A stretch of DNA of 57,695 nt from Fibrobacteria bacterium. GTDB taxonomy: Bacteria > Fibrobacterota > Fibrobacteria > UBA11236. The notes beneath the pieces are model-generated. The model did not search any database and had not been told where the DNA came from. It was given only the letters and a program-made list of their open reading frames with translations. Location: positions 1 through 57,695 of the forward strand of contig JANYDA010000031.1 of assembly GCA_025360005.1 (NCBI GenBank). The letters run 5' to 3'. This document shows positions 6,601 to 57,365 of this stretch, piece after piece (the first letter of the stretch is position 1; each line of letters begins with the position of its first letter). The position numbers and the translations under genes are program-made.

Positions 6601-9403
6601 TCTTCTCAAAGCGCATGCCTATTGGGAAATGAAGCGCGTGGACGTGGATCTGGTCATGCTGAATGAAAATCCTTCCGAGTCTTATCTGCAATCCCAGCAG
6701 AACGAGTTGGAAGGCCTGCTGCGCATGCGCCATGCGGGCCAGGCAACCCGGGGCGGGGTCTTTTTGCTGCGCCGGGACGCCATCCAAAAGGAACAGCTGC
6801 TGCTGCTGCAGGCGTCCGCCCGCGCGGTACTCGGCAGCCGGCGCGGCAGTTTGGCGGATCAGGTGATGCGCATGCGCCGCAACACCGCGCCCACCGCTCC
6901 CGTGCCCGCAAAAGCACGCGCCGCAAAAACGAGCGCGGCTTCTCCCGTGCTTCCGGCCCTGGAGTTTTTCAATGGCCTGGGCGGTTTCGCTTCGGATGGA
7001 AAGGAATACCACATCATCCTGGGCGACGGCCAATGGACGCCTGCCCCATGGATCAACGTCATCGCCAATCCGGATTTCGGATTCCTGGTTTCCGAATCCG
7101 GATCGGGATTCACCTGGTGCGGCAACAGCAGGGAAGCCAAGCTTACGCCGTGGTTCAACGATCCCGTTTCGGATCCCGGTGGCGAAGCGGTTTATCTGCG
7201 CGACCGGGATACAGGGGCGGTTTGGAGCCCAACCGCGCTGCCGATCCGCGAAGAGGGGCAGCCTTATGTCGTCATCCACGGCCAGGGGTATTCCCGCTTC
7301 ACGCATGAATCCCACGGCATTCGCCAGGAGTTGACGCAATGGGTTCCCTGGGAGGATCCGATCAAGATATCGCGCCTGATTCTGGAGAACACTTCCGATC
7401 AGCCGCGCCGTCTGGACGCGACTTTTTACGTGGAATGGGTATTGGGCGCGGCGCGCGGGCCCTCGACGCAACAGGTGCAGACCAAATCCGACGCCGCTAC
7501 GGGAGCCCTCTTCGCGGGCAATACCTGGTCCGCCGAATTCGCGGGCAGGGTTGCGTTTGCGGATCTGCAAGGCCGCCAGAGCTCATTCACATGCGACCGC
7601 GCCGAGTTCCTGGGACGCAACGGAGACCGAGCCGCACCCGCTGCCCTGTTCAAGCCGGAACCATTGTCGAACCGGGCCGGGGCGGGGATGGATCCCTGCT
7701 CGGCTTTGCAGTGCGCCCTTGTCATCCCCCCTTACGGAAAAACGGAGATCGTTTTCACCTTGGGCCAGGCTTCCCGGGAATCGGCCGCTTCCGATCTGGT
7801 CCGTAAATACCGCGCCGTCGATTTCGCGAAATCGTGGCAGGATGTAAAAGAAAAATGGGATGCCTTACTGGGCGGCGTCCGCATCCGCACCCCGGATCGC
7901 TCCCTGGATCTATTGCTGAACCGCTGGCTTCCGTACCAGACCATCGCGTGCCGGCTTTGGGCGCGTTCCGGTTTCTACCAGGCGGGGGGCGCCTATGGCT
8001 TCCGGGATCAATTGCAGGATGCGATGGCGTTCACGGTGCTGGATCCGGGCCCGGCCCGCGAACAGATTATCCGGGCCTCGGGTAGGCAGTTCCACGCCGG
8101 GGACGTGCAGCATTGGTGGCACCCGCCTTCCGGCCGAGGGGTGCGCACGCATTTTTCCGACGACAGGATCTGGCTGATCTACGCGGTGCTGCATTACCTG
8201 GAAAGCACCGGGGATGTGGGCGTCCTGGATCAGGAGACGCCTTTCCTGGAGGGTCCGGATATTCCCCCGGGCAAGGAGGACGCCTATTTCCATCCCGAGA
8301 CCTCGTCGGAATCGGCGAGCGTGTACGAGCATTGTTCGCGCGCGCTCGATCGCAGCCTGGCCGTGGGTTCGCATGGGCTGCCCTTGATGGGAAGCGGCGA
8401 CTGGAACGATGGCATGAACCGCGTGGGGCAATCCGGCAAAGGGGAAAGCGGGTGGCTGGCCTGGTTCCTGATCCCCAACCTGAAAGGGTTCGCCGACATC
8501 GCGGAATCGCGCGGGCACCGGGAACGGGCCGCGGCCTGGCGCGAAAAGGCCGAGCAGATACGCCTGGCGATGGAATCGCAGGGCTGGGACGGCGATTGGT
8601 ACCGCCGGGGGTACTTCGATGACGGGACGCCGCTGGGTTCTTCGCAGTCCCGCGAGTGCCGCATCGATTCCATCGCCCAGAGCTGGGCGGTGCTTTCGGG
8701 AGCGGCCGATCCGTCCCGCGCCCGCCAAGCCATGATCTCGGTGGAAGAGTACCTGGTCAAGCGCGAAGAGGAGCTCATCCTGCTCTTCACGCCGCCCTTC
8801 GACGTATCCAACGCCGACCCGGGGTATATCAAAGGTTACCTCCCGGGAGTGCGCGAGAACGGCGGCCAATACACGCATGCGGCGGTGTGGGTGGTGGCGG
8901 CCTTCGCCGCGCTGGGCGAAGGCAACAAGGCCGCGGAATTGTTTTCCCTCCTGAACCCCGTCAACCATGCCGGAACGCGCGCAGGCGCCCTCCGGTACAA
9001 AGTGGAGCCTTACGCCGCCGCCGCCGACGTTTATGCCGTCAGCCCGCATGTTGGACGCGGAGGCTGGACCTGGTATACCGGATCCGCGGGTTGGATGTAT
9101 CGCGCCGGCCTGGAATGGATGCTGGGGTTGCGGATTTCCGGAAAAAGATTGACCCTGCGGCCTTGCATTCCCCGCGATTGGCGCCGGTTCGAGATCAAAT
9201 TGCGGCGCGGCGCGTCGGAATATGAAATCACCGTGCTGAATCCCAACGGCCATACGCGCGGGATAGAGGCCTGCCAGGTGGACGGAGTTACCCTGGAGCG
9301 GGTGCCCGCATCTTACGGCTTGGATGACGACGGTAAAACGCACTACATCCGGGTTACCATGGGGGAGCCGCGGAGTGGATCAGAAGGAGGAGTGAACCTA
9401 TGA
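614..9403 (+). CDS. ndvB: Cyclic beta-1,2-glucan synthase (NdvB/ChvB/Cgs family)
   Basis: A 2,929-residue inner-membrane enzyme expected to polymerise UDP-glucose into cyclic beta-1,2-glucan; Agrobacterium and Brucella homologues are about 2,830-2,870 residues, so it is full length. In order: a conserved N-domain (LPKLTQGAFTGYPRVY, TIGELWAVAITLR), a GT84 glycosyltransferase with DVDTRLP near residue 625 and RQHRWARGDWQL near 778, membrane helices in about 410-455 and 815-1000, a glucoamylase-like domain (YFAHHQGMM near 1560), a carbohydrate-binding segment near 1640, and a C-terminal GH94 phosphorylase-like domain with GSGDWNDGMN near 2592 that sets chain length. The start could be GTG 614, ATG 617 or ATG 674; family alignment slightly favours 674 (MDPIRSEIFS). 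The next gene overlaps its stop by 4 bp. Confidence 0.95.
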   Translation: MMILSPLGDVNTREDARPSGMDPIRSEIFSAEHLQAYAAELAGLHKSASARSRRRGVPLLRRVEENGEALREAHRIITRAILADRSVTPAAEWLADNFYVVNVQLREIRNHLPPSYYRDLPKLTQGAFTGYPRVYAIICAYIAHTDSRLDAELLARFLQAYQRVQPLTIGELWAVAITLRVALTENLRRLADQMVGGRDARKKADRVADMLLNLRSQDAGSIAVTPEDWERSGDSPFFTAFAAQLFQRLQDQAPPHAAPLDWMDAELSRQGISAQEIIRQEHQKLAASNISVRNIITSMRLVLELDWKEFFESVSMVETVFRASPGYSEMDFASRDLYRHAVENLSRSSGKDELRVATMAVESIGQGEADDPREVGYSLIGCGRREFERGLGYRSEAREAIRRFFKAGGIWFYAGGIMAIALLFAIAGLRSLADAGLPWAAVIVPVLLALAPYSEGALALMNRIASDLSAARILPKMDFTKGIPAFSRTLVAVPSMLRDKAEVGDLIERLEVHFLANPDGDIRFALLSDWVDAPSEKMPGDEDLLAAAVAGVADLNARYAPLPDGGARFLLLHRRRTWNARDRVWMGWERKRGKLSELNRLLRGERELGFILSPDDLGRVPSGVKYVITLDVDTRLPKGAAARLAGCMAHPLNRPHFDAGKGRVTAGYGIMQPRVVPALPERGRGTFFHWVTAGECGIDPYASAISDVYQDLFGEGSFTGKGIYDVDAFEHSLRGRIPENAMLSHDLFEGVFARAGLVTDIEVLEDFPSHYQASTLRQHRWARGDWQLLPWILGSRGKGLPFLGRWKMADNLRRSLVAPCAFFSLALAWLMAPQPPVAWTAILLLALAMPFFVAAHGAILSYRSGFSLRSYLRDVEAALLQALSHYLLSIVLLAHQAWLMSDAILRTGLRLCFGRGSMLQWIAAAVAATRVHFRLPGIYRDMAGAVVLPAALLAGMFLLGRIGNLPIAAPLLALWLLSPAAALFASTPRKIRRGGMLSPEESVFLRLTALKTWRFFRDFVNEGENNLPPDNFQEDPQPVVAHRTSPTNMGLCLLSIATARDLGWLGLAETAQRLEGVLGSMGKLERYRGHFFNWYATRDARPLEPRYISTVDSGNLAGHLLALKRSCLEYMDASILSPSLEAGLADLFGLVKEAVRALPENMRAQAFGREHLLEALLALESLVIPVPVESDEWTARVSAWDAQSGSVVDLARSMAMDQKDPAFKELLGCAEFLRATLGGILRDIDAYSPWLLARSDWDALQPLPIPETRHLLDGRPSLRELESRCLAAAAELRGLPPAVQGEHEGYADTLILAGRFADGLIRSAREARAMLDRLGTLSVTAERLGLDMDFGFLEDPHRKLFSIGFRVREEQLDPGFYDLLASEARLTSFLAVAKGDVPPSHWFRLGRTLTPVGRGATLLSWSGSMFEYLMPSLVMRPPEGSLLDVACRYAVERQMEYGRDNGIPWGISEAAYSIRDLEMTYQYSSFGVPGLGLKRGLGTDLVVAPYATGLAAMIAPRSAAENLLRLRSEGAEGKYGFYDAVDYTKARLQEGSRATVVKSYFAHHQGMMLVALGDVLLGGRMRERFHSEPIIQAVDPLLQERLPKGVAIAEPNTEEAERPLPVANLIEPVLHRFNTPHEPIPRTHILSNGRYTVLITAAGSGFSRWQGQAITRWREDAVMDAYGQYFYLRDTESGHTWSAAFQPMGREPDSYSAVFAEDRVEITRRDGSLTATLEIVISPEDDAEVRRLTLENTGYRDREVEVTSYCEVVMAPQEADLAHPAFSNLFVQTEFIPGLGALLATRRPRSAGESPSWAAHVCGVEGQAVGGIQYETDRARFLGRGRTVRRPVSVVDGKPLSNTAGAVLDPVFSLRRRVRVPADGKVRISFTTLAAETREKALALADKYRETESFQRVATLAWTQAQIQLKHLGIGPDEARLYQRLANRLYYTDAALRPSPDLLAMNRKGQEGLWAFGISGDLPIVLAGFDEGGDRNLARDLLKAHAYWEMKRVDVDLVMLNENPSESYLQSQQNELEGLLRMRHAGQATRGGVFLLRRDAIQKEQLLLLQASARAVLGSRRGSLADQVMRMRRNTAPTAPVPAKARAAKTSAASPVLPALEFFNGLGGFASDGKEYHIILGDGQWTPAPWINVIANPDFGFLVSESGSGFTWCGNSREAKLTPWFNDPVSDPGGEAVYLRDRDTGAVWSPTALPIREEGQPYVVIHGQGYSRFTHESHGIRQELTQWVPWEDPIKISRLILENTSDQPRRLDATFYVEWVLGAARGPSTQQVQTKSDAATGALFAGNTWSAEFAGRVAFADLQGRQSSFTCDRAEFLGRNGDRAAPAALFKPEPLSNRAGAGMDPCSALQCALVIPPYGKTEIVFTLGQASRESAASDLVRKYRAVDFAKSWQDVKEKWDALLGGVRIRTPDRSLDLLLNRWLPYQTIACRLWARSGFYQAGGAYGFRDQLQDAMAFTVLDPGPAREQIIRASGRQFHAGDVQHWWHPPSGRGVRTHFSDDRIWLIYAVLHYLESTGDVGVLDQETPFLEGPDIPPGKEDAYFHPETSSESASVYEHCSRALDRSLAVGSHGLPLMGSGDWNDGMNRVGQSGKGESGWLAWFLIPNLKGFADIAESRGHRERAAAWREKAEQIRLAMESQGWDGDWYRRGYFDDGTPLGSSQSRECRIDSIAQSWAVLSGAADPSRARQAMISVEEYLVKREEELILLFTPPFDVSNADPGYIKGYLPGVRENGGQYTHAAVWVVAAFAALGEGNKAAELFSLLNPVNHAGTRAGALRYKVEPYAAAADVYAVSPHVGRGGWTWYTGSAGWMYRAGLEWMLGLRISGKRLTLRPCIPRDWRRFEIKLRRGASEYEITVLNPNGHTRGIEACQVDGVTLERVPASYGLDDDGKTHYIRVTMGEPRSGSEGGVNL

Positions 9404-41781: not shown

Positions 41782-43449
41782 CTAGGCAAGGATATCGTCC
41801 GGCCCATCCACCGCGGGAGCCTTATTCTTGTTGGTGATCAGGTGCAATGCCTCCAGATGCTTGCGGAATGCCTTTACGGCCCGCCCTTTCAGAGCGCGCG
41901 CGGCCAGGGGTTCGCACAACAACTTGGTGCGTATGAAAAGCCGCTCCCAGCGGGAAAGCGCGATCAGCTCGTGTTTCATCAGATAGCGGATCAATTCCCC
42001 GAAAAGGGAATTCCAGACCAGCAGGTTGATCCCGAAACCGCCCAGGAAAGCCGTGCGCGAGGCGATGATCAGATGATGTTCCTTGTTGTTCAACTGCGGA
42101 TGCTTATAGCTGGCCTTCAGCCTGCGGAACCCGATGCGCTCGTACATGGGCAGGAGTTCATCCATGGCCGATGTCAGCAGCCAATGCCGGTCGGACATCA
42201 GGAAATGCTTCAAGCCGTGTTCGAACATCCCTTGCAGCACGTCCGTGCCGCGATACTCGGGATGGATGCACAGGCGCGAGACTTCGATAAGGTTCGCCTT
42301 GGGCGGCAAAGGCACCGGATATTTCCCCCCCTGGAATCCCGCTTGGCTATCCAGTACGGTTTCTTCCGAGGTAGGGAAGGTGAATGTCAACGTACCCACC
42401 AAGCGCTCATGATGGTGCGCCATCAGGATGCGGCTCTTGCCGTCCAAGGCGGAAGCCATGTCTTCCGGAGAGGTCTCACGGGCGCGCTTGCCCGCCCCCA
42501 CGTAGGCGTCCCGGCGCAGGTAGAGGACTTCCGCATAGTCTTCCAGCGATTTCACCGAGCGGAAACGCAGGTGGCTTTTGACCTGTTGTACCCGGAACCC
42601 GGCGTCGAACAACCTGGCCGGGGTCCATTGCCGGGAAAACATGAGGAAGTCGCAGATGCCGTTGTGGAGCCGGAAGTCGATGTCGGCGCATTCCACTCCG
42701 AAGCGGATTTCTTCCGCGCTGGCCGCGTTGATCCACGCTACGCGCACACGCATGGGAAGCGATCGGTACGAGGCCAGCTCGAAGAAGAGGCGCAACTCCA
42801 TGCCCTCGAACAGCAGGATCGACTCGTCGTGGGAAAGGAAGGAGAATCCCATGTTCTTGTTGAGATCGGAAGCCTGGAGCGCGCACCAATGCCCGTAAAT
42901 GAAGGGATGCCGCACACGCGCCCGCAAGGCGAGCGACGGCGCGAGAGAAAGGCGGAATCCTTCCCGCCTTTCCAAATCGACGGCGCGGGGGAAATTCAGA
43001 TCCAACCGCCGGCAGCCGATTTTGAAACCGTCTTTCCAGTGGCTCACGTTCTTTACTTCGCACCAGACTTCAAATTCCTGGTGGGCTTCAATCCGGATCC
43101 GGACCAGGAGTTCTTCGCCTGCTGAAAGCGGAGACGATTTGGATTTGTCGTCGGGATGGGGTTGGTAAAGAATTCCGAACCCGATGGCGCTGAAATCCCA
43201 GAGTTTGACCGCGCACCAATTCTCGCCGCCCATGCGGACCGAAACGGAGACGGAGCCCAACTCCCGCTGGGAAAAACGGCTTTGGTTCCGCTTGTCCTCC
43301 TTTACGGAAGGCCGCTTTTTTTTCTTGGGTTGGCGATGGCGTTTGGATTGGGGAACCGGGCTCCAATCGCTTTCCAGGCGGGTGTTGGTTGCGGGAGCCG
43401 CCCAAGCGGCTTTCGCGGCCCCGGAATCTCCCAAAGAATTCTTGTCCAT
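41782..43449 (-). CDS. PilZ domain plus N-acyl-amino-acid-synthase-like acyltransferase (paralogue 2)
   Basis: A 555-residue protein. I use ATG 43449 (MDKNSLGDSG); starting higher would overlap the diiron gene and read a basic, low-complexity stretch. After a Lys-rich N-terminus comes a PilZ domain with RNQSR (54-58) and DFSAIG (85-90), the c-di-GMP-binding RxxxR and DxSxxG motifs, and a second PilZ-like unit (RREGFR). The C-terminal half is a GNAT-fold domain of the FeeM/NasY type (YLRRDAYVGAGK, EVSRLCIHPEYRGTDVLQ, YERIGFRRL), which in relatives joins fatty acyl groups to amino acids. Third gene of the operon 45794-41782, 19 bp after the diiron gene. Acyl donor and amine are unknown. Confidence 0.78.
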   Translation of the reverse strand: MDKNSLGDSGAAKAAWAAPATNTRLESDWSPVPQSKRHRQPKKKKRPSVKEDKRNQSRFSQRELGSVSVSVRMGGENWCAVKLWDFSAIGFGILYQPHPDDKSKSSPLSAGEELLVRIRIEAHQEFEVWCEVKNVSHWKDGFKIGCRRLDLNFPRAVDLERREGFRLSLAPSLALRARVRHPFIYGHWCALQASDLNKNMGFSFLSHDESILLFEGMELRLFFELASYRSLPMRVRVAWINAASAEEIRFGVECADIDFRLHNGICDFLMFSRQWTPARLFDAGFRVQQVKSHLRFRSVKSLEDYAEVLYLRRDAYVGAGKRARETSPEDMASALDGKSRILMAHHHERLVGTLTFTFPTSEETVLDSQAGFQGGKYPVPLPPKANLIEVSRLCIHPEYRGTDVLQGMFEHGLKHFLMSDRHWLLTSAMDELLPMYERIGFRRLKASYKHPQLNNKEHHLIIASRTAFLGGFGINLLVWNSLFGELIRYLMKHELIALSRWERLFIRTKLLCEPLAARALKGRAVKAFRKHLEALHLITNKNKAPAVDGPDDILA

Positions 43450-43468
43450 GTCCTTCAATCCGGCCGGA

Positions 43469-44218
43469 TTACTTTCCAGCGCCTTTTTTTTCCGGCGGGT
43501 TCCCGTCCGCCTTGGCGGCGCGCGTTTCCCGCTTACCGATGCTGCTCCAGTCTCGTGCCCGCGTCTCATCGTCCAGAATACCCTGCAACATGAGCGCATG
43601 CAGGCGAGCGGTGCCTTTGGCGCAGTGGATTACGGCCTGAATATCCTCTTCCGTTTCCAGGCTCCCAAGCAGATATCCCTCCAGCCATTTGGTATGCGTC
43701 ACATCCACTTTTGCATGCTCGTCCAGAAAAGTCATCGCGGTCGCGGGGACGCCCATGGCGGTAAGCGCCTTCAGGATGCTTTCGCCCTTGCCGGCCGGCA
43801 GCATTTCCAAGTGATAAATGTAACCCAAGTATCCAACCGGATTGGAATGCTGCACCTGATAGATTGCGAAAGCGAGCATGGCTTCCGTAGTGGGGAGTGG
43901 GCGGCCCGCCGGGATGCCGGATACGTCCTCGCCCAGGCTGCGCAGGTCGTCCAGCGCCATATTATGGTGGCCGTATTCGGCCAGGCAATGGCGGAAAATT
44001 TTCGGCGATAAGTCCCGTTTGTTGCCTTTCAAGTGCCCGGACATCAAGGCGAAGGATTGTGGGTTTTCCCGCACATTGTAGTAGATTTCCCGCAGCAGGA
44101 TCTTGTAATGATCCAAGGTCAATGAGCCTTCCACCAAGCGCCGGAAAAAATCACCTTGGTATAAATCGCCCAGGGAGGCTTCCCACTCTTTTTTGATCCT
44201 ATCGATCATCTTTCCCAT
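43469..44218 (-). CDS. Haem-oxygenase-like diiron oxidase/oxygenase (iron-containing redox enzyme)
   Basis: A 249-residue all-helical protein of the haem-oxygenase-like diiron (HDO) group, which includes UndA (fatty acid to terminal alkene), SznF and BesC. ATG 44218 is an estimate; ATG 44209 is possible. Candidate metal ligands in family order: Glu44 (LLREIYY), Glu81 and His84 (AEYGHHNM), Glu138 (YHLEML), His168 (DEHAKVD), Asp172 and His175 (VTHT). Its start overlaps the stop of the upstream acyltransferase by 20 bp and its stop is 19 bp from the next one, so it is embedded in that operon. The substrate is probably a fatty acyl or N-acyl compound; this is inference. Confidence 0.75.
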   Translation of the reverse strand: MGKMIDRIKKEWEASLGDLYQGDFFRRLVEGSLTLDHYKILLREIYYNVRENPQSFALMSGHLKGNKRDLSPKIFRHCLAEYGHHNMALDDLRSLGEDVSGIPAGRPLPTTEAMLAFAIYQVQHSNPVGYLGYIYHLEMLPAGKGESILKALTAMGVPATAMTFLDEHAKVDVTHTKWLEGYLLGSLETEEDIQAVIHCAKGTARLHALMLQGILDDETRARDWSSIGKRETRAAKADGNPPEKKGAGK

Positions 44219-45794
44219 CCATGGATATTCTTTTCTGCAACAATTCCCGGAATTCCCTTTCCAACCCCGCATCCAACCATTTGCGGGTGAACCCGGAGAA
44301 CAGGGAATAGAACGCCACCCTGGCCTTGAGCCAGGAGCCCAACTGCAAGTGCCCGCGCTCGATCAATTCACGCACCAGGGAGCCGAAGAAATAATTCCAC
44401 GCGAACGGCCGCATCCGCACCCCCGCGATCAAACTGTTCCTATGCAGCAGGATCAGGTGGTGCTCCAGGTTCCCCAGCTCCTTGATGAGCACGGAGGCGC
44501 CCACCTTCTTGAAGCCTATCCGGCGGTACAGCGGCCACAATTTGGCGGTGGTAAAGGTGAGGATCCACTTCCGATCGGAAAAGAGCATGCAACGCGCGAT
44601 TTGCTCGAACATGCCCTGGATCAGATCCCCGCCGCGGTAATCGGAATCCGTACAAAGGGAAATCACCTCCATGATGGAGTCCTTGGGAGGCACCCGCACC
44701 GGGAATTCCGCGCCCGGGAAACATCCTTCCGTCCTGAGCGTGGTCCCCTCCGCCCCCGCGAAGCTTAAAGCCACGGAAGCCACCAATTGGTCCCCATGGA
44801 AAGCCGCCAGCAGGCGGCTGTGGGAATCGAAGGCGGTTGCGATGGGATCCGGGTCGGCGTGGGGAGAAGCCTTCCCGGCCTTTGCATACGCATCCTTCCG
44901 CAGCTTGAGGATGGCTTCGTATTCCTCCTGGGTGGAAACGAAACGGAAGCGCGTCTGATCCTTGAACCGTTTCAGCCGCAGGCCGAAGTCCGATAACCCG
45001 CTGGGTTTGCAAAGCTCCGCTTGCACGAAATGCTCGCCGATGGCGTTAGAGAGATCGAAGGAAAGATCCGATTCATGGATCGCGAAAAGGACGCGCCCGG
45101 CAAGGCCCGCGCGGATCCAAGCGATGGAACCGGTGCATTTCCCTTGCGAGTCCAGAGGCAGCTCGATGTCCAAGGTGACGCGGGCCCCTCCCAACAACAA
45201 CAGCCCCGCATCGGAGGATTCAAATACCATGGTTGCCTTGGGCCCAATCCCCACCATCCTGGCTTCCGACCACTCCTTATACAGGTAAGGGTTCAGGACC
45301 TTGGCCGTAACGGGCCGGATGGTATCCTGCAAATAGCCGGGCGGAAACTCCGGTTCCTGCTCGCCGTTGGCGAAGGGCAGCAGATCCAGTCGGCTCAGGC
45401 CTATCCGCATCCCTTTTTCCACCCGGGTGGCATTCTCGATGAGGCAAGGCAGCTGGAAACTTTTCCCGGGCTGGGCGTCTTTACCGCCGAGCCCGCCCAG
45501 TCGCAGCTCTATGCGATCTCCGGGAACGGAAAACTCGGATGCGATGCCGCCCGGCTGGTACAGGATCCCAAAACCGAAAGTGGAGTAGTCCCATATCCGC
45601 ACTGGTACCCACTCGTTCCGCTTCCGGGATCGGATCCATGCCGGGATCCGTTCTATTTCCCGCTCCACCGTGCGCGGCGCATGCCGCAACGCGCTCGCAT
45701 CGGAAGGGCGCCAGGATTCACGGGGTAACTTCAACGGATCCAATGGATAGTTGGTGCCGGGCGCTATGGGTATGGCTTGCTGCGGTTGGTTCAT
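44199..45794 (-). CDS. PilZ domain plus N-acyl-amino-acid-synthase-like acyltransferase (paralogue 1)
   Basis: A 531-residue paralogue of the protein at 41782-43449, sharing its architecture. The PilZ motifs are REIER (45-49) and DYSTFG (69-74), followed by a second PilZ-like module and a C-terminal GNAT/FeeM-type domain (KLRKDAYAKAGK, EVISLCTDSDYRGGDLIQ, YRRIGFKKV). It is the first gene of the three-gene operon, 95 bp from the divergent histidine kinase. The two paralogues diverge strongly outside the motifs, so they probably have different substrates or form a heteromer. Both binding motifs are intact, so control by c-di-GMP is likely. Confidence 0.78.
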   Translation of the reverse strand: MNQPQQAIPIAPGTNYPLDPLKLPRESWRPSDASALRHAPRTVEREIERIPAWIRSRKRNEWVPVRIWDYSTFGFGILYQPGGIASEFSVPGDRIELRLGGLGGKDAQPGKSFQLPCLIENATRVEKGMRIGLSRLDLLPFANGEQEPEFPPGYLQDTIRPVTAKVLNPYLYKEWSEARMVGIGPKATMVFESSDAGLLLLGGARVTLDIELPLDSQGKCTGSIAWIRAGLAGRVLFAIHESDLSFDLSNAIGEHFVQAELCKPSGLSDFGLRLKRFKDQTRFRFVSTQEEYEAILKLRKDAYAKAGKASPHADPDPIATAFDSHSRLLAAFHGDQLVASVALSFAGAEGTTLRTEGCFPGAEFPVRVPPKDSIMEVISLCTDSDYRGGDLIQGMFEQIARCMLFSDRKWILTFTTAKLWPLYRRIGFKKVGASVLIKELGNLEHHLILLHRNSLIAGVRMRPFAWNYFFGSLVRELIERGHLQLGSWLKARVAFYSLFSGFTRKWLDAGLEREFRELLQKRISMDGKDDR

Positions 45795-45824
45795 GTGAAA
45801 TCAGATGAATCTTAAGGAGTGGCA

Positions 45825-45917
45825 GTGAAAAAAGTCAAATTCCTAACGGCAACGGGGAAGTTGCTACCTTCACGGAGGGTTGCGCGCATATGGAAAAAGT
45901 CTACTCCAACAAGCTGA
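45825..45917 (+). CDS. Possible 30-residue leader peptide before the histidine kinase
   Basis: GTG 45825 has a stronger ribosome-binding site (AAGGAG, spacing about 6) than the kinase start itself. It encodes MKKVKFLTATGKLLPSRRVA and ends at 45917, 28 bases inside the kinase gene in another frame. Such overlap would couple or throttle kinase translation. It may equally be chance. Confidence 0.25.
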   Translation: MKKVKFLTATGKLLPSRRVARIWKKSTPTS

Positions 45918-48046
45918 TATTCTCCTTGGCCCGATTTCTGGAACAGAAATTCGGGAAGGCGAAAATTGATGAAATCCTTGAAAAAGCCAAGATAGATCGC
46001 CTGAAGCTGGCGGATCCTTCCGGGTTCCAGACGGCAGAGGAGGCGGATGCCCTCACCCGCACGGCGATGGAACTGACCGGGGAAAAGGACATCACCTATC
46101 TGGCCGGCAGAAACCTTCCCAAGGACCTGGGCAAGGCGGGCGGCTTTATCATCGGTGTCACGTCCCCTGCCTTCATCATGAAAACCCTGTGCCATATAGA
46201 GGGCCGCATGGCCCTGAAAACCATCAATCACACCCAGAAGATCGGGCGCAACCGCTATCAAGTCGACATCACTTTCAAAGATGGTTTTAAAGAACAGGAT
46301 TATGTATGCCGCCACCGCATCGGTGTGTATGAATCCGTGCCTTTATTCTTCGATCTCCCCTTCGCGAAAGTGGAGCATCCGCAATGCGCTTTCAAAGGCG
46401 GGGAACATTGCCGGTATGAGATCCAATTCCCGGAATCCCAATTCTCGATCTACAACCGCATTTTCCAATTCTTGGTTCTCTTGGCCCTGGCAAGCTTGTG
46501 CATCTGGTTCCGCAAGACCTCGCCCCCCTCATTCTTGTATGCCAGCTTCCTCGCTTCCAGCCTGGGTTTCCTGAGCCTGGCGCGTTACCGCAGCTTGGGC
46601 GCCAAAAAATCGCTGGAATGGTCCCTGATCGCCAACGAAGGCTTGAGCAAGCAAAACCAGCAATTGGAAAACAACAATCTCCAGATCAATTCCCTCCAGG
46701 ATCTCTCCACCTTGCTGCTCAATTCCATGCGCGTGCAGCAAATCTGCGACAAGGTGGTATTCATGCTGGTGCAGCAATTCCGTTTCGGCTCCAGCCAAAT
46801 CTGGCTCCTGGACGATAAGGGCGAATACCTGGGATGCAGGAAAGCGATGGGATATTCGGAATCCCTTTTGGCGTTCATCATCAACACGCGTTTCAAGATA
46901 GGGGAGAACTGGGACAACCCTTATGGCCTGCTGGTGCAGACGTTGGAGAAAAAGCAAACCCTGCTGGTGAACGATCCGGAAGAAGTCTACTCCAGGGTGA
47001 CGCCCCGTACGCGGGAATTCCTGGAGGCGTTGAAAATCTCTTCCTTCATCATGACGCCCTTGTTCCACGGCGATAGGCCGCTGGGCATTCTGGCGGCCGA
47101 ATACCATTCCGGGGAAAAGATGCAGAACCAGGACAAGCTCCTGTTCCAATCGATTTCCAATATCGTCGCCAACGCCATCGTGAAAGCGGAGCTCTTCACG
47201 CAAATGGAATGGAAGATCGAAGAGCGGACCCGGCAATTGGAAGCCGCTTCCAAGCAGCTGCTGGCCGCCCAGGAAATGGCCATCCAAAGCGAGAAGCTTT
47301 CTTCGCTCGGCCAGATGGCCGCGGGCGTGGCGCATGAGATCAATAACCCGCTGAATTTCCTCATCAACATCCTGCCGGACGTGCGCCGGGATGTGGAAGG
47401 CCTGGAGAAGATCCGTGAGCTGGCCGCGCAGGGCGGGCTGAGCGAAGCCGCCTTGCAGGCCATCAAAGCCGTGGACGAGCAATACGATCTGGAAACGCAT
47501 TTGTCCGAGAAGAACTTCGTCTTCGAGAAAATCCAGAAGGCCTTGGACAAAAGCACCCGCATCGCCAACAGCCTGAAGGTCTTTTCCCGCTCTTCCGCCA
47601 AGGAGGCGATCACCCGGGAAAAGTTCGGGGACATGATGCGGGAAGTGATCGATCTGGTGCCGCGGAAAATCATCGGCGACACGCGCATCCTGGTCGAAAT
47701 CCCCGGCAGCCTGGATTGGATGGTGAACAAGAACGAGATGGAGCAGGCGTTCCTGGCCATCATCAACAACGCCATCGACGCCATGAACCAGAAGGGCGAG
47801 CTTGCGATCCGGGGCGAGGATGCGCCGGAGGAGATCAGGATTTCCTTTCAGGACCAAGGCCCGGGGATCTCGGAAGAGATTATCAAACGTATCTTCGACC
47901 CGTTCTACACAACCAAACCGCCCGGTAAGGGGACGGGGTTGGGATTGACCATCGCCTTGGAGATCGTCAAAAAGTACGGCGGCGTATTGGGCGTCCAATC
48001 CCAGCCGGGCCAGGGAACGACCTTTTCGATCCGTTTCAAAAAATAG
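45890..48046 (+). CDS. Sensor histidine kinase with V4R/HNOB-like N-domain, membrane helices and GAF
   Basis: A 718-residue kinase. Residues about 1-185 form a soluble ligand-binding domain ending in AFKGGEHCRYEIQF, a pattern I know from V4R/haem-NO-binding-like sensor domains; specificity is unknown. Two membrane helices follow (about 193-235), then a GAF domain (about 270-430), a coiled coil, HisKA with MAAGVAHEINNPLN (phospho-His near 483) and a HATPase domain (INNAIDAM, DQGPGISEEI, GKGTGLGLTIALEI). No receiver is attached. It is divergent from the PilZ/acyltransferase operon, which it may regulate. ATG 45890 has GGAGGG ten bases upstream. Confidence 0.85.
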   Translation: MEKVYSNKLIFSLARFLEQKFGKAKIDEILEKAKIDRLKLADPSGFQTAEEADALTRTAMELTGEKDITYLAGRNLPKDLGKAGGFIIGVTSPAFIMKTLCHIEGRMALKTINHTQKIGRNRYQVDITFKDGFKEQDYVCRHRIGVYESVPLFFDLPFAKVEHPQCAFKGGEHCRYEIQFPESQFSIYNRIFQFLVLLALASLCIWFRKTSPPSFLYASFLASSLGFLSLARYRSLGAKKSLEWSLIANEGLSKQNQQLENNNLQINSLQDLSTLLLNSMRVQQICDKVVFMLVQQFRFGSSQIWLLDDKGEYLGCRKAMGYSESLLAFIINTRFKIGENWDNPYGLLVQTLEKKQTLLVNDPEEVYSRVTPRTREFLEALKISSFIMTPLFHGDRPLGILAAEYHSGEKMQNQDKLLFQSISNIVANAIVKAELFTQMEWKIEERTRQLEAASKQLLAAQEMAIQSEKLSSLGQMAAGVAHEINNPLNFLINILPDVRRDVEGLEKIRELAAQGGLSEAALQAIKAVDEQYDLETHLSEKNFVFEKIQKALDKSTRIANSLKVFSRSSAKEAITREKFGDMMREVIDLVPRKIIGDTRILVEIPGSLDWMVNKNEMEQAFLAIINNAIDAMNQKGELAIRGEDAPEEIRISFQDQGPGISEEIIKRIFDPFYTTKPPGKGTGLGLTIALEIVKKYGGVLGVQSQPGQGTTFSIRFKK

Positions 48047-53021: not shown

Positions 53022-53690
53022 TTACTCCACGTTCATACCTTTCAGGAACATTTCCAGGTATTTTTCCCCTTTCCCCTCAAAATCCACAGGCTTGTTAATG
53101 AAATCGTAAAATCTGTTGGATCGCAACGAACGGTACATCAGGTCTTCATCGCTATTTGGATTTCCAGTAATAAGAATAAATCTCATCAAGGGTTTGGCTT
53201 TTTGGACCTCGTCACATAGTTCATTGCCGCTCAGCTTAGGCATAACTTCGTCGGTAATAACAAGCGCTACGTCGTCGCTGGCTTTGATGAATGCCAGGGC
53301 ATCGATGGGACTTGTGAAAGTTTTCAGGTTAATGCGCTTGCCGAATTTCCTTTTGAAAACGAATATGTTTTCTTCCTCGTCGTCCACATATACTACGACT
53401 GGATTTTTCTTTCGGGAAGCCAGAGATAATTTGATTTGCTTTAGCAAATCGCCCAAACTCATGGTATTCAAATCTGTAGGGTTCAGCAAGTCCCTTAACT
53501 TTAAATCCTTACCGCCCAGGCGGTCTTCTAGTTCTGCAACTACTTCTGGTAATGTGGTAATATCCAGGCCCAAATCGTCCAGCGCCATTCCTTCATCCAA
53601 TTTTTCTGGCAAACCCCTATAAGACGGATCTTTGAAGGACAGTCCGGCCACAATTTCCCTTATAATTCCGTATAGTGTAGTTGTTTCCAT
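53022..53690 (-). CDS. ACP-like domain fused to response-regulator receiver (paralogue 1)
   Basis: A 222-residue cytoplasmic protein. Residues about 5-88 have acyl-carrier-protein pattern (GMALDDLGLDITTLPEVVAE, then LEDRLGG and MSLGDLLKQI), but the phosphopantetheine Ser of the usual GxDSL is Ile44, so it cannot carry an acyl group. Residues about 97-220 are a complete receiver: Asp103/104, phospho-Asp147 (LVITDEVMPKLSG), Thr175 (ILITGN) and Lys200 (FINKPVDF). It begins 8 bp after the alpha-oxoamine synthase stop, hence one operon. No output domain: it may regulate the synthase by contact. GC is low (about 40%). Confidence 0.75.
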   Translation of the reverse strand: METTTLYGIIREIVAGLSFKDPSYRGLPEKLDEGMALDDLGLDITTLPEVVAELEDRLGGKDLKLRDLLNPTDLNTMSLGDLLKQIKLSLASRKKNPVVVYVDDEEENIFVFKRKFGKRINLKTFTSPIDALAFIKASDDVALVITDEVMPKLSGNELCDEVQKAKPLMRFILITGNPNSDEDLMYRSLRSNRFYDFINKPVDFEGKGEKYLEMFLKGMNVE

Positions 53691-53698
53691 GATTCTCC

Positions 53699-54982
53699 TT
53701 AAGCACTTGCCGATGGAACGATACCGAGTCTTCCGCCGACGTCAATGAGGATGGCTAGTGTGCGATCGATTTGATCATACGTATGTGATGCATTTGTTAT
53801 GAATCGTAATCGGCCTTCATTGAGTTTAACGGCAGGGAATGCGATTGTCACCGAGAATACGCCATTTTCATAAAGGTTTCTACCAAAAGCGAGCAACGTC
53901 TTCGTTTCTCGTACATAAATGGGAATGATTGGGCTTTGGCTTTTTCCCAGGTCGAATCCCGCAGCGCGAAGGCCCTTGCGGAAATAGGCCGTCTTTTCAT
54001 GTAAGCCGCGAATCAAAGCTGGATCCGACTCGATTTCATCAAGGCTTGCCAGAACTGCGCCGGCATCCGCGGGGGAGATGCAGGCTTGGAAAATATAAGA
54101 GTTGGAATGCCATGACATTAGGGTACAGTATTTTTTTTTGGTTGAAACGAATCCGCCTATGGAAGCGGTCGCTTTGGACAACGTCGACATGATAAAGTCG
54201 ACATCATCCGTAACACCTTGTTCATAGCAATAACCGCGGCCACCTTCGCCGTAAAATCCAAATGAGTGTGCTTCGTCCACATACAGATAAAATTTGTACT
54301 TCTTCTTAAGAGCAGCGATCTCTCTCAATGGGGCTAGATCTCCGCTCATGGAATAAGCCGATTCGACAACTACTAAAATATTCTGGAATTTGTCCTGGCA
54401 GCGCTGAAGCTTCGCCTCAAGATCGGTCAAATTGTTGTGTTTGAAGGCAAGCCACTGTTTCCCAGAAAGTTTGCATCCATCAATGATGCTCGCATGGGAT
54501 TGATGATCGAAAAGGATGATGTCGTTCTTGCCAGGAATGGCGGAAATCGCTCCCAGGTTGACTGAGTACCCGGTAGGAAATAAAAGGGTCCGTTCCTTTC
54601 CTGTCATCGCATTGATGCGTGATTCAATGGCTTTGTGAAGGGTGTTCATGCCCCCCGACATGGCAGAGGTTCCCGCCCCGGTTCCGTAACGTTCCACTAT
54701 TTCTTTTGATTTGGCGATGACTCTGGGATTTCTGTTTAAGCCCAGGTAGTGATTGACACACCAAAGAATACATTCGTTTTTTTTTCCGGTTCCTTCGGTG
54801 ATCACCAAAGCTTGGGAGTCGCTCCCGAATTCAGTATAGCGATCATTGGAGTAAAGGCCCTCTATGTTCTGCAAATCCTTAACGGTTTGCATGGCATCGG
54901 CGATACTATCGAAATCGGTTACTCCTTCGTCCACCAGCTTGCGCATCACATTTCCGATTACCATCGAAGTATTTAGTTCCAT
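53699..54982 (-). CDS. Alpha-oxoamine synthase (CqsA/SPT/KBL-type PLP enzyme)
   Basis: A 427-residue PLP enzyme that condenses an amino acid with an acyl thioester. Motifs: NHYLGLNRNPRVI, YGTGAGTSAMSGG (99-111), LLFPTGYSVNLGAIS, DHQSHASIIDG (159-169), YVDEAHSFGFYGEGG (234-248) and the PLP-binding Lys270 (STLSKATASIGGF). The fold includes 8-amino-7-oxononanoate synthase, serine palmitoyltransferase and the autoinducer synthases CqsA/LqsA. There are no biotin or sphingolipid genes nearby, and the neighbours are a signalling regulator and a CqsS-like receptor, which points to a signal molecule. A sphingolipid-type product remains possible. Confidence 0.85.
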   Translation of the reverse strand: MELNTSMVIGNVMRKLVDEGVTDFDSIADAMQTVKDLQNIEGLYSNDRYTEFGSDSQALVITEGTGKKNECILWCVNHYLGLNRNPRVIAKSKEIVERYGTGAGTSAMSGGMNTLHKAIESRINAMTGKERTLLFPTGYSVNLGAISAIPGKNDIILFDHQSHASIIDGCKLSGKQWLAFKHNNLTDLEAKLQRCQDKFQNILVVVESAYSMSGDLAPLREIAALKKKYKFYLYVDEAHSFGFYGEGGRGYCYEQGVTDDVDFIMSTLSKATASIGGFVSTKKKYCTLMSWHSNSYIFQACISPADAGAVLASLDEIESDPALIRGLHEKTAYFRKGLRAAGFDLGKSQSPIIPIYVRETKTLLAFGRNLYENGVFSVTIAFPAVKLNEGRLRFITNASHTYDQIDRTLAILIDVGGRLGIVPSASA

Positions 54983-55001
54983 TGGGTCACCTTTTCAGAT
55001 T

Positions 55002-55034
55002 GAGATAGTATCTCTTTCCGGCATGAAAAGCCGG
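55002..55034. promoter_or_regulatory. Palindrome and hairpin in the divergent synthase/receptor promoter region
   Basis: GAGATA-G-TATCTC (55002-55014) is a perfect 13-base palindrome, followed by CCGGC-atgaaaa-GCCGG (55018-55034). Both lie in the 150-bp gap between the divergent alpha-oxoamine synthase and cyclase genes, where one regulator could control both. Confidence 0.45.
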
Positions 55035-55132
55035 TTACTGGAGAAAATTGAGGCGCAGAAGTGGCCGATGGATTTTTTTTCGTCCACCCCGTAAAATCGC
55101 AATGAACCGAATCCAACCAGAGTCCGAGGAAG

Positions 55133-56650
55133 ATGCGAAAGTTCCACCTCAACACCGATTACGCTTTTTTCCAAAAAGTGATCCCCGTACTGGGTGGATT
55201 CGGGTTGTTCGGGCACGTGACATTCTATTTCATCCTGAAATACGGCTTCTCTTACTGGGAATCTTGGCAGTTGAGATTGAGCGCCGCGCTCATTCACGTA
55301 GCCTTGATATTCTTCCCAAGGGAAAAATCGCTTAGCATCATTCAGAAGATGTATTTCGAAACGGCGATTGCCCTTACCCTTCCCGCTTTGTTCACGGTGC
55401 TTTTCCTTAAAAACGGATGCAATGTCTATTGGTATTCTTCCTTAATCTTCGCGGGGTTATTGCACGGTCTGTTGACTAAACCTTTTCTTTTTATCTGGAC
55501 ATTTCCAGCCGCGGCCGGACTGGCGACAATGTTTTTCACAAGGATTCATCCTGGAGAGCATCAATTGGTGATGCAAAGTCTGCAAGCGCAGTTGGTCGCT
55601 TATTTCCTGGGATTGATTACTACCGGTATCAAAACCACCATGGAAATATCTCATGAGAAAATCATGGTAACCAAGATGGCGCTGGCAAAGGCTGAAAATG
55701 ATTTACTCACAGCCGAGGTGACTCGTAAGGCCTACGATGAGCTTAAGAAGCGCGAAGAGCTTATCCGCCTCTACGTCCGCCCTTCCCTGGTCGAAGAGAT
55801 CCGCGCCGGTAAGGACCCGTCCAAATCCGATCCGGTAATCAAGAACCTCTCCATCATGTTCTGCGACATCCGCGAATTCACCAAGCTCACCGAAACCTTG
55901 ACCCCCTATGAACGCCAGATGTTCCTCAACCAGTACTTCTCCATGATGACCCGTCCAATCGTCGACAACGGGGGAGAAGTCGACAAGATCATGGGGGATT
56001 GCGTCATGAGCATTTTCCCGGACGGCGCCAAGGCCGTGAAAGCCGCGGTCGCGATGCGCCTGGAATTGCAGAAGTTCAACGAGGCCATGTTCGCCGCCGA
56101 AAGCCCCATGATCCGCAACGGCATAGGCATCGCCAAGGGCGACGTGATGCAGGGGAACTTCGGTTCCTTTGAAAAGCTGGACCGTACCGTCATCGGCGAA
56201 GCGGTCAACATCGCCTCCCGTCTGGAGTCCAAGACCAAGATGTACAACCTGGAAGTGGTCGTTACCGAGGACGTCATCAAGGATTTGCCTTTGGGTTCCG
56301 CCCACTACCGTTGGATAGATAATGTCCAGGTCAAGGGATCCACCCGCCATCTCAAATTGTTCGAGATCTACGGGCATCAGCCTGCGGAAGTCCGGCAGTA
56401 TAAGGACGATACCCGGGACTTGCTTGAGAAGGCATTGACCATCTATTTCCAAAAGGGTTTCAAGGACGCTTCCCGGCTGTTCCGCGCCATGCTGGAACAG
56501 GTGCCGCCCCATCGTCTTATCGCCAACGATTTGATGGACAACATCCTGCACTATTACATCGCGCATTGCGACGCCTGGATCAACAATCCCAACGGCACGT
56601 GGGAGGATATCCAGCGTTGGGAAGGCGTTCATGTGTTTACGGAAAAGTGA
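55133..56650 (+). CDS. Six-helix CqsS-like membrane sensor fused to class III nucleotide cyclase
   Basis: A 505-residue protein; ATG 55133 has GAGGA upstream. Six membrane helices (about 16-39, 47-61, 72-92, 97-114, 118-135, 150-168) follow the plan of CqsS, the CAI-1 receptor. Trp100 and Ser103 (VYWYSS) sit where I recall the ligand-contacting Trp104 and Ser107, and the last helix runs into ISHEK as in CqsS. A coiled linker (170-215) leads to a class III cyclase: metal Asp near 244 (FCDIREF), Lys/Asp near 286-290 (DKIMGDCVM), and the N-x3-R transition-state pair (NIASRLE). The Lys and Thr (DRTVIGE) suggest ATP, hence cAMP. A TPR-like tail ends the protein. GC jumps at about 55.72 kb. Confidence 0.8.
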   Translation: MRKFHLNTDYAFFQKVIPVLGGFGLFGHVTFYFILKYGFSYWESWQLRLSAALIHVALIFFPREKSLSIIQKMYFETAIALTLPALFTVLFLKNGCNVYWYSSLIFAGLLHGLLTKPFLFIWTFPAAAGLATMFFTRIHPGEHQLVMQSLQAQLVAYFLGLITTGIKTTMEISHEKIMVTKMALAKAENDLLTAEVTRKAYDELKKREELIRLYVRPSLVEEIRAGKDPSKSDPVIKNLSIMFCDIREFTKLTETLTPYERQMFLNQYFSMMTRPIVDNGGEVDKIMGDCVMSIFPDGAKAVKAAVAMRLELQKFNEAMFAAESPMIRNGIGIAKGDVMQGNFGSFEKLDRTVIGEAVNIASRLESKTKMYNLEVVVTEDVIKDLPLGSAHYRWIDNVQVKGSTRHLKLFEIYGHQPAEVRQYKDDTRDLLEKALTIYFQKGFKDASRLFRAMLEQVPPHRLIANDLMDNILHYYIAHCDAWINNPNGTWEDIQRWEGVHVFTEK

Positions 56651-56651
56651 A

Positions 56652-57365
56652 TCAAAAGAAGTCCCCTGACAGCACCTTATTCATCGACTCGAAATACTCC
56701 TCGCCCTGCTTGTCGAAATCCAACGGCTTGTTGATGAAATCGTAGAAGCGTCCGTGGCGCAGGGAGCGGTGGACCAGGTTTTCGTCGCCGCCGGGATTGC
56801 CCGTGATGAGGATGAATTTCAGGAACGGTTTGTATTGGTGGACCAGATCGCAAAGATGGTTGCCGCTCATGCCGGGCATGGACTCGTCCGTCAGTACCAA
56901 AACCACGTCCGGGCTTTCCTTGATGAATGCCAGGGCTTCCTCAGGTTTGGAAAAGGTGCGGAGGTTGATGCGCTTGGCATAGCGCCGTCGGAACACGAAA
57001 AGGTTTTCCTCTTCGTCATCCACGTAAACCACCACGGGATTTTGGATGCCATGGTGCAGGCTGGATCGGATATGGCCGATCATATCGCCGATGGTCGCAT
57101 AGCGGTTCTGTCCCGCGGCCGTGCCGCCGAAGGCTTTCTGCATGCGGTACATCAATTCCACATTGAGCGCGATGCCGCCCAAGCGATGGCGCAGTTCCTT
57201 CGCAAGCTCGGTGATGTTGGCGTCGGTAACATGCAGGGATGCGAGGCTGGTTTCCGCGGTGATGGGATCCGGAAGAGGCGCGAAGGAAGGGTTCTCGCGG
57301 GATAACCTTGAGAATACTTCCCGTAAAATGGCGAGTACGCGATCGGGATGCACAGTTATCCCCAC
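56652..57365 (-). CDS. ACP-like domain fused to response-regulator receiver (paralogue 2)
   Basis: A 237-residue paralogue of the protein at 53022-53690, with the same plan: an N-domain of about 100 residues with ACP-like helices (ANITELAKELRHRLGG, TIGDMIGHI) but no GxDS motif, then a complete receiver (VVVYVDDEEENLF, phospho-Asp160 in LVLTDESMPGMSG, LKFILITGNPGG, FYDFINKPLDF). It converges on the cyclase with a one-base gap. The receivers are highly alike while the N-domains differ, so each may dock with a different partner. Composition is normal for the chromosome, unlike paralogue 1. Confidence 0.75.
   Translation of the reverse strand: MGITVHPDRVLAILREVFSRLSRENPSFAPLPDPITAETSLASLHVTDANITELAKELRHRLGGIALNVELMYRMQKAFGGTAAGQNRYATIGDMIGHIRSSLHHGIQNPVVVYVDDEEENLFVFRRRYAKRINLRTFSKPEEALAFIKESPDVVLVLTDESMPGMSGNHLCDLVHQYKPFLKFILITGNPGGDENLVHRSLRHGRFYDFINKPLDFDKQGEEYFESMNKVLSGDFF

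What the first reader, a model, noticed from the sequence alone, without database searches (positions are those of the whole stretch)
41782..45794. PilZ-gated N-acyltransferase pair around a haem-oxygenase-like diiron enzyme
Three overlapping or nearly touching genes encode two PilZ plus FeeM-like acyltransferases and one HDO-fold oxidase. FeeM-type enzymes make N-acyl amino acids, and HDO enzymes such as UndA act on fatty acids. The operon may make a modified acyl-amino acid under c-di-GMP control. I know of no described pathway with this set.
Basis: partly seen in the sequence, partly recalled or inferred. Interest (0 to 1): 0.82.

Follow-up and report, generated by a model that had tools for sequence, protein, structure and literature searches.

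The report
c-di-GMP-type acyltransferases flanking a diiron oxidase
In one genus of Fibrobacterota, two fatty-acyltransferases that look switchable by the signal c-di-GMP are locked in a conserved operon with a diiron oxidase; this probably makes an oxidised fatty-acyl amino acid by a route no paper I could find describes.

Summary
On the minus strand are A (44199-45794), HDO (43469-44209) and B (41782-43449), nearly touching. [quoted passage not shown] The middle gene is a haem-oxygenase-like oxidase (HDO) with all six metal ligands (E-H-E-H-D-H). The order A-HDO-B recurs at six loci in five of the six genomes of the genus; the sixth has B alone at that locus. No other genome searched in the phylum has the HDO. 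Outside the phylum, related HDOs lie beside FeeM-like GNAT or 'thermostable hemolysin' genes in many Proteobacteria. A caution: A keeps the catalytic Glu but has lost the Arg of ExxR at all six loci; B keeps both. Best reading: PilZ-controlled N-acylation of an amino acid coupled to HDO oxidation of the acyl amino acid. Substrate, order of steps and c-di-GMP binding are inferred. NAS-PilZ fusions were known (Nas343/354), with opposite domain order and no HDO. I found no paper on a NAS-HDO pathway. New variant of a known kind; interest 0.6.

The parts
44199..45794 (-). Gene A: PilZ-type double barrel plus FeeM-type N-acyl amino acid synthase plus helical tail (531 aa)
   Evidence: PF21926 E=1.6e-9; AlphaFold model pLDDT 80.6; Foldseek VCA0042/MotI and FeeM; VIA-align FeeM Z 18.7, rmsd 2.3, 171 of 184 aligned
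45375..45686 (-). A, first barrel: PilZ signature R37xxxR41 ... D69YSTFG74
   Evidence: alignments; strands in the model
44409..44960 (-). A, NAS (GNAT) domain, residues 279-462; catalytic Glu376 kept, Arg of ExxR replaced by Ser
43469..44209 (-). HDO gene: haem-oxygenase-like diiron oxidase (246 aa from ATG 44209; the mechanical ORF starts at 44272)
   Evidence: PF14518 E=2.7e-19; PDB profile hit 3dde 2e-30, MboA 2.4e-7, PABA synthase 1.1e-6; six ligands E99 H102 E156 H186 D190 H193 (267-aa numbering) invariant in 14 proteins
41782..43449 (-). Gene B: PilZ-type double barrel plus FeeM-type N-acyl amino acid synthase (555 aa; the mechanical ORF starts at 43599)
   Evidence: PF21926 E=1.6e-11, PF07238 E=7.6e-7; start with GAAGGA upstream
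42997..43287 (-). B, first barrel: PilZ domain (RFSQR ... DFSAIG)
   Evidence: PF07238
42019..42573 (-). B, NAS (GNAT) domain; catalytic Glu (EVSR) with Arg kept
45795..45889 (.). 95-bp divergent intergenic region between A and the sensor kinase
   Evidence: one promoter-like match, not above chance
45890..48046 (+). Divergent sensor kinase: N-terminal region with weak similarity to the AraC arabinose-binding domain, then GAF and HATPase; possible regulator of the operon
   Evidence: divergent neighbour at 4 of the 6 loci (window, G002, G003, G005; 60-63% identity)

Best explanation
The operon encodes a small lipid-modifying pathway. B (canonical) and A (divergent) are FeeM-type N-acyltransferases that transfer a fatty-acyl chain from acyl-ACP to the amine of an amino acid. 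Their N-terminal PilZ barrels make them likely to be switched by c-di-GMP. The HDO between them oxidises the product, most likely by binding the free carboxylate of the N-acyl amino acid to its diiron centre and desaturating, hydroxylating or decarboxylating it. A and the HDO form the variable, substrate-tuned pair and B the common unit. Shown: gene order and its conservation, domain make-up, kept catalytic Glu and metal ligands, co-divergence of A and HDO. Inferred: acyl amino acid as substrate, order of steps, c-di-GMP binding, control by the divergent kinase.
For: FeeM is the best structural match of the GNAT domain of the A model, and FeeM Pfam hits occur in 11 of the 13 aligned family members. 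The catalytic Glu is invariant; Glu103Ala in the PilZ-fused Nas354 abolished activity (PMC4897644). The PilZ RxxxR is invariant in all full-length A and B of the operons, and the genome has seven GGDEF matches over the cut-off. The order A-HDO-B is kept at six loci in five of six genus genomes, including a tandem duplication of the whole operon in G004. The HDO was found in no other genome of the 167 searched in the phylum. Identity matrices correlate 0.90 for A-HDO against 0.60 for B-HDO, which fits A and HDO sharing a molecule. Outside the phylum, HDO relatives lie next to FeeM-like GNAT genes in Agarilytica (E=1.6e-8), Deefgea and P. syringae-group plasmids (the last two weak), and in a T_hemolysin/AMP-binding/HDO/SDR operon at 12 proteobacterial loci. 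HDOs such as MboA, UndA, HrmI, AetD and PolF bind a substrate carboxylate at Fe1 (PMC13185094).
Against: A has lost the Arg of ExxR at all six loci, so its activity may differ or be absent. In G001 the syntenic locus has B alone, so B does not need the HDO. There is no dedicated carrier protein, acyl-activating enzyme or reductase in the operon. PilZ is not called by Pfam in A, and five of seven B copies have the last motif Gly changed to Ser. With six loci the co-divergence is weak statistics and partly shared ancestry. No product or substrate is known.
Confidence: 0.45

Rival explanations
1. The HDO acts first, on a free amino acid or amine (as BesC or HrmI do), and the NAS enzymes then N-acylate the oxidised amine.
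For: The characterised HDOs nearest in sequence (MboA, PABA synthase, BesC, HrmI) work on amino acids, peptides or a tyrosine side chain (PMC13185094). Co-divergence of A with the HDO fits equally well.
Against: Gene order cannot tell the sequence of steps. No transporter or amino-acid biosynthesis gene lies in the operon. B stands without the HDO in G001.
Confidence: 0.25
2. The amine that is acylated is not an amino acid but a sphingoid-like amine from the alpha-oxoamine synthase encoded at 53699-54982; the operon makes an oxidised ceramide-like lipid.
For: An alpha-oxoamine synthase of the serine palmitoyltransferase/BioF type lies 8 kb away (NF047600 E=2.2e-102, below its cut-off) and a 72% identical copy lies on the same contig in G004.
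Against: G002 and G003 have the operon but only distant homologues of this synthase, so the operon does not depend on it. The GNAT domain of A matches FeeM best.
Confidence: 0.1
3. A is no longer an acyltransferase but a c-di-GMP-binding partner or regulator of B and the HDO.
For: Loss of the ExxR Arg in all six A copies while the PilZ signature stays intact in all of them; the reverse trend in B.
Against: The catalytic Glu and much of the GNAT core are invariant in A. A diverges together with the HDO, as a substrate-tuned enzyme would.
Confidence: 0.15
4. The HDO is an UndA-like fatty-acid decarboxylase or another oxidase that is metabolically unrelated to the NAS enzymes and only co-transcribed.
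For: Same superfamily as UndA; no direct evidence of a shared substrate.
Against: Strict placement between A and B at six loci, and recurrent pairing of related HDOs with N-acyltransferase-type genes in other phyla. UndA was not among the PDB sequence hits, which is inconclusive.
Confidence: 0.05

Closest known systems
Nas343 / Nas354, N-acyltyrosine synthases with a PilZ-like domain (slaughterhouse metagenome, PMC4897644)
   Same: FeeM-type NAS fused to a c-di-GMP-binding-type PilZ domain; catalytic Glu; a single enzyme gave N-acyltyrosines in E. coli
   Different: There NAS is N-terminal and one PilZ is C-terminal; here two barrels come first, then NAS, then a helical tail. No HDO was reported, and the authors presume the genes are not in a pathway operon
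FeeM (PDB 2g0b), N-acyl amino acid synthase
   Same: Best structural match of the GNAT domain of A (Z 18.7); Pfam FeeM in A and B
   Different: FeeM has no PilZ barrels; A lacks the Arg of the ExxR pattern seen in B and other relatives
Sden_3740 (PDB 3dde), HDO-fold protein of Shewanella denitrificans, function unknown
   Same: Closest solved relative of the HDO (profile E=2e-30; top of Foldseek with a poor model)
   Different: Uncharacterised; its neighbourhood was not examined here
MboA of mangotoxin biosynthesis and other HDOs (PABA synthase/CADD, BesC)
   Same: Same fold and the same six-ligand pattern (E86 H89 E143 H172 D176 H181 in MboA; PMC13185094)
   Different: They act on peptides, amino acids or their own tyrosine, and none is paired with a FeeM-type synthase in the papers read
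T_hemolysin / AMP-binding / HDO / SDR / TPR operon of Proteobacteria (found here; no paper found)
   Same: HDO relatives downstream of a gene that may be an NAS-like acyltransferase
   Different: No PilZ; has an acyl-activating-type enzyme and a reductase; the link of T_hemolysin to GNAT is only suggestive (hhalign 65% with a broadened profile)

Membership tests
FeeM-type N-acyl amino acid synthase (A and B) | FeeM / GNAT fold domain | tested here: met
   PF21926 over cut-off in A and B; A model matches FeeM Z 18.7, 171 of 184 residues
FeeM-type N-acyl amino acid synthase (A and B) | Catalytic Glu (FeeM Glu95, Nas354 Glu103) | tested here: met
   Invariant Glu (A E376) at the start of a central strand of the GNAT domain in all members; the exact residue pairing with FeeM Glu95 was not printed by the tools
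FeeM-type N-acyl amino acid synthase (A and B) | Arg three residues after the Glu (ExxR, also of AHL synthases; from memory of that family) | tested here: inconclusive
   B: EVSR in all seven. A: Arg lost in all six (S or G). Kept in Deefgea EFGR, Agarilytica EGSR, G006 EVGR
FeeM-type N-acyl amino acid synthase (A and B) | Makes N-acyl amino acids from acyl-ACP | not testable with these tools
   needs expression and mass spectrometry
PilZ c-di-GMP receptor | RxxxR and D/NxSxxG motifs before and in a six-stranded barrel | tested here: met
   A: RTVER, DYSTFG; B: RFSQR, DFSAIG in the window; barrel strands in the A model; Foldseek VCA0042 3.9e-8. Five of seven B copies have DFTSIS instead
PilZ c-di-GMP receptor | Binds c-di-GMP | not testable with these tools
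   GGDEF domains are present in the genome
HDO (haem-oxygenase-like diiron oxidase) | Six-ligand E-H-X-H-D/E-H motif | tested here: met
   E99 H102 E156 H186 D190 H193 invariant in 14 proteins; motif as stated in PMC11363339
HDO (haem-oxygenase-like diiron oxidase) | Haem-oxygenase-like fold | tested here: met
   PF14518, 3dde profile E=2e-30; own model poor (pLDDT 56) yet top match 3dde
UndA fatty-acid decarboxylase | Sequence relation to UndA | tested here: inconclusive
   UndA not among PDB hits up to E=1
PEP-CTERM/exosortase-linked NAS | Located in an exosortase locus | tested here: not met
   The genome has one exosortase, on another contig (C20)

The most novel reading that the evidence does not exclude
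A widespread and undescribed class of pathways in which an HDO oxidises the N-acyl amino acid made by a neighbouring FeeM-like or T_hemolysin-type acyltransferase; in this Fibrobacterota genus the pathway has been placed under c-di-GMP control by PilZ fusion on both acyltransferases.
Probability: 0.35. Interest if true: 0.78.

Novelty: new variant of a known kind. Interest (0 to 1): 0.6.

Why it matters
If right, it would give HDOs a new class of substrate (acyl amino acids), explain why a group of 'iron-containing redox enzyme' genes sits beside acyltransferase-type genes in Proteobacteria, and show a second messenger acting directly on the synthesis of a small lipid signal or surfactant. A single expression experiment would test it.

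Tried and rejected
Viral contigs gave no relative of A or of the HDO. The one genome-contig scan with the HDO found only genomes of the same genus. A survey centred on other phyla was not possible, so the proteobacterial evidence comes from plasmid records only and is a biased sample. The HDO fold model is poor and was not used for active-site claims. T_hemolysin as an NAS relative: hhalign E 0.12 against the NAS alignment, no PDB hit, 65% with a broadened profile; left as suggestive. The neighbour upstream of the Rhizobium HDO looks NAS-like by eye and by a weak local profile hit but has no Pfam match, so it was not counted. Pseudoalteromonas THAF3 has a KASIII, not a GNAT, beside its HDO, a counter-example. 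A throwaway query with a made-up NAS/AHL-synthase-like sequence was not used as evidence. Promoter and terminator matches are at chance level. No paper was found that pairs an HDO with FeeM or T_hemolysin; the library lacks most subscription journals. The whole-genome PilZ search did not list the window's own B, so that search misses weak PilZ domains.

Full report
What is there. The window is one contig of a 4.98 Mb genome. On the minus strand lie A (44199-45794), HDO (43469-44209) and B (41782-43449). The HDO start codon overlaps the stop of A (ATGATCGATAG), and B starts 19 nt after the HDO stop behind GAAGGA. A 95-bp gap separates A from a divergent sensor kinase (45890-48046). An ABC-F gene follows B.

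Domains. Pfam finds FeeM in A and B, PilZ in B, and Haem_oxygenas_2 in the HDO. The AlphaFold model of A (pLDDT 80.6) has two barrels (52-135, 162-241), a GNAT domain (279-462) and C-terminal helices. Foldseek's top matches are the c-di-GMP receptor VCA0042 and MotI for the front part and FeeM for the GNAT domain. The structural aligner puts FeeM first, Z 18.7, 171 of 184 residues, rmsd 2.3.

Active sites. The PilZ RxxxR is invariant in all full-length A and B of the operons; DxSxxG is intact in every A and in B of the window, while five of seven B copies have DFTSIS. B keeps an RxxxR motif and DxNxxMG in its second barrel too; A does not. The NAS Glu is invariant. B has EVSR throughout; A has lost the Arg at all six loci. 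Related proteins keep ExxR. The HDO carries the six ligands E-H-E-H-D-H, invariant also against eight proteobacterial relatives, as in MboA and most HDOs (PMC13185094; PMC11363339).

Conservation. The order A-HDO-B occurs in G000, G002, G003, G005 and twice in tandem in G004. G003 has a third NAS next to it. G001 has at the same locus only B, between the same neighbours, and a second PilZ-NAS elsewhere. The HDO profile finds nothing in the other genomes of the 167 searched in the phylum. The sensor kinase is the divergent neighbour at four of the six loci. A and HDO diverge into the same two types (correlation 0.90), B less so (0.60 with HDO); six loci are few, and shared ancestry contributes.

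Beyond the phylum. Relatives of the HDO on plasmids sit in two main settings. One is an operon T_hemolysin - AMP-binding - HDO - SDR - TPR, often followed by a two-component system, in Pantoea, Aeromonas, Pseudoalteromonas, Variovorax, Vibrio, Citrobacter, Salinivibrio, Alteromonas, Photobacterium and Novosphingobium. The other is a FeeM-like GNAT directly upstream of the HDO: Agarilytica (FeeM E=1.6e-8), Deefgea (0.004) and 23 Pseudomonas plasmids (about 30% identical to the Agarilytica GNAT). So the pairing of an N-acyltransferase-type gene with this HDO subgroup is not confined to the window's genus, although the statistical link of T_hemolysin to GNAT is only suggestive.

Mechanism. FeeM-type enzymes join acyl-ACP to amino acids, and a NAS-PilZ fusion of the opposite domain order was shown to make N-acyltyrosines, with loss of activity in Glu103Ala (PMC4897644). 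N-acyl amino acids keep a free carboxylate, and several HDOs bind a substrate carboxylate at Fe1 (PMC13185094). The most economical reading is therefore acylation by A and/or B followed by HDO oxidation of the acyl amino acid, gated by c-di-GMP. The reverse order, a non-amino-acid amine, and A as a regulatory partner remain open. None of the steps has been measured.

Verdict.

Noticed in passing
window 53022-57365: A serine palmitoyltransferase/BioF-type alpha-oxoamine synthase (53699-54982) lies between receiver-domain proteins (53022-53690, 56652-57365) and an adenylate/guanylate cyclase (55133-56650). The N-terminus of 56652-57365 has a very weak carrier-protein match (PP-binding E=0.038). 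A quorum-sensing autoinducer-synthase-like relative sits near B in G001.
   Followed up: partly
L009 7873-17867 (G004): The whole A-HDO-B operon is present twice in tandem; the two copies belong to the two different A/HDO types.
   Followed up: partly
L047 2297-4696 (Photobacterium) and L051 2528-4564 (Novosphingobium): AMP-binding and HDO appear in one open frame, hinting that the two proteins work on one substrate.
   Followed up: no
L036 4141-9198 and L049 (P. syringae-group plasmids): A small cluster with phenylacetate-CoA-ligase-like, FeeM-like GNAT, HDO, flavodoxin, EamA transporter and hydrolase genes, next to anthranilate synthase genes; looks like an uncharacterised biosynthetic cluster on conjugative plasmids.
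   Followed up: no
L038 5230-8542 (Deefgea plasmid): FeeM-like, HDO, DUF3419 and SAM decarboxylase genes in a row.
   Followed up: no
window 614-9403: A 2929-residue protein with glucoamylase-like and glycosyl hydrolase 94 domains.
   Followed up: no
L043 6316-7743 (G001): A second, stand-alone PilZ-NAS without HDO, grouping with A-type proteins and next to an M18 aminopeptidase.
   Followed up: partly
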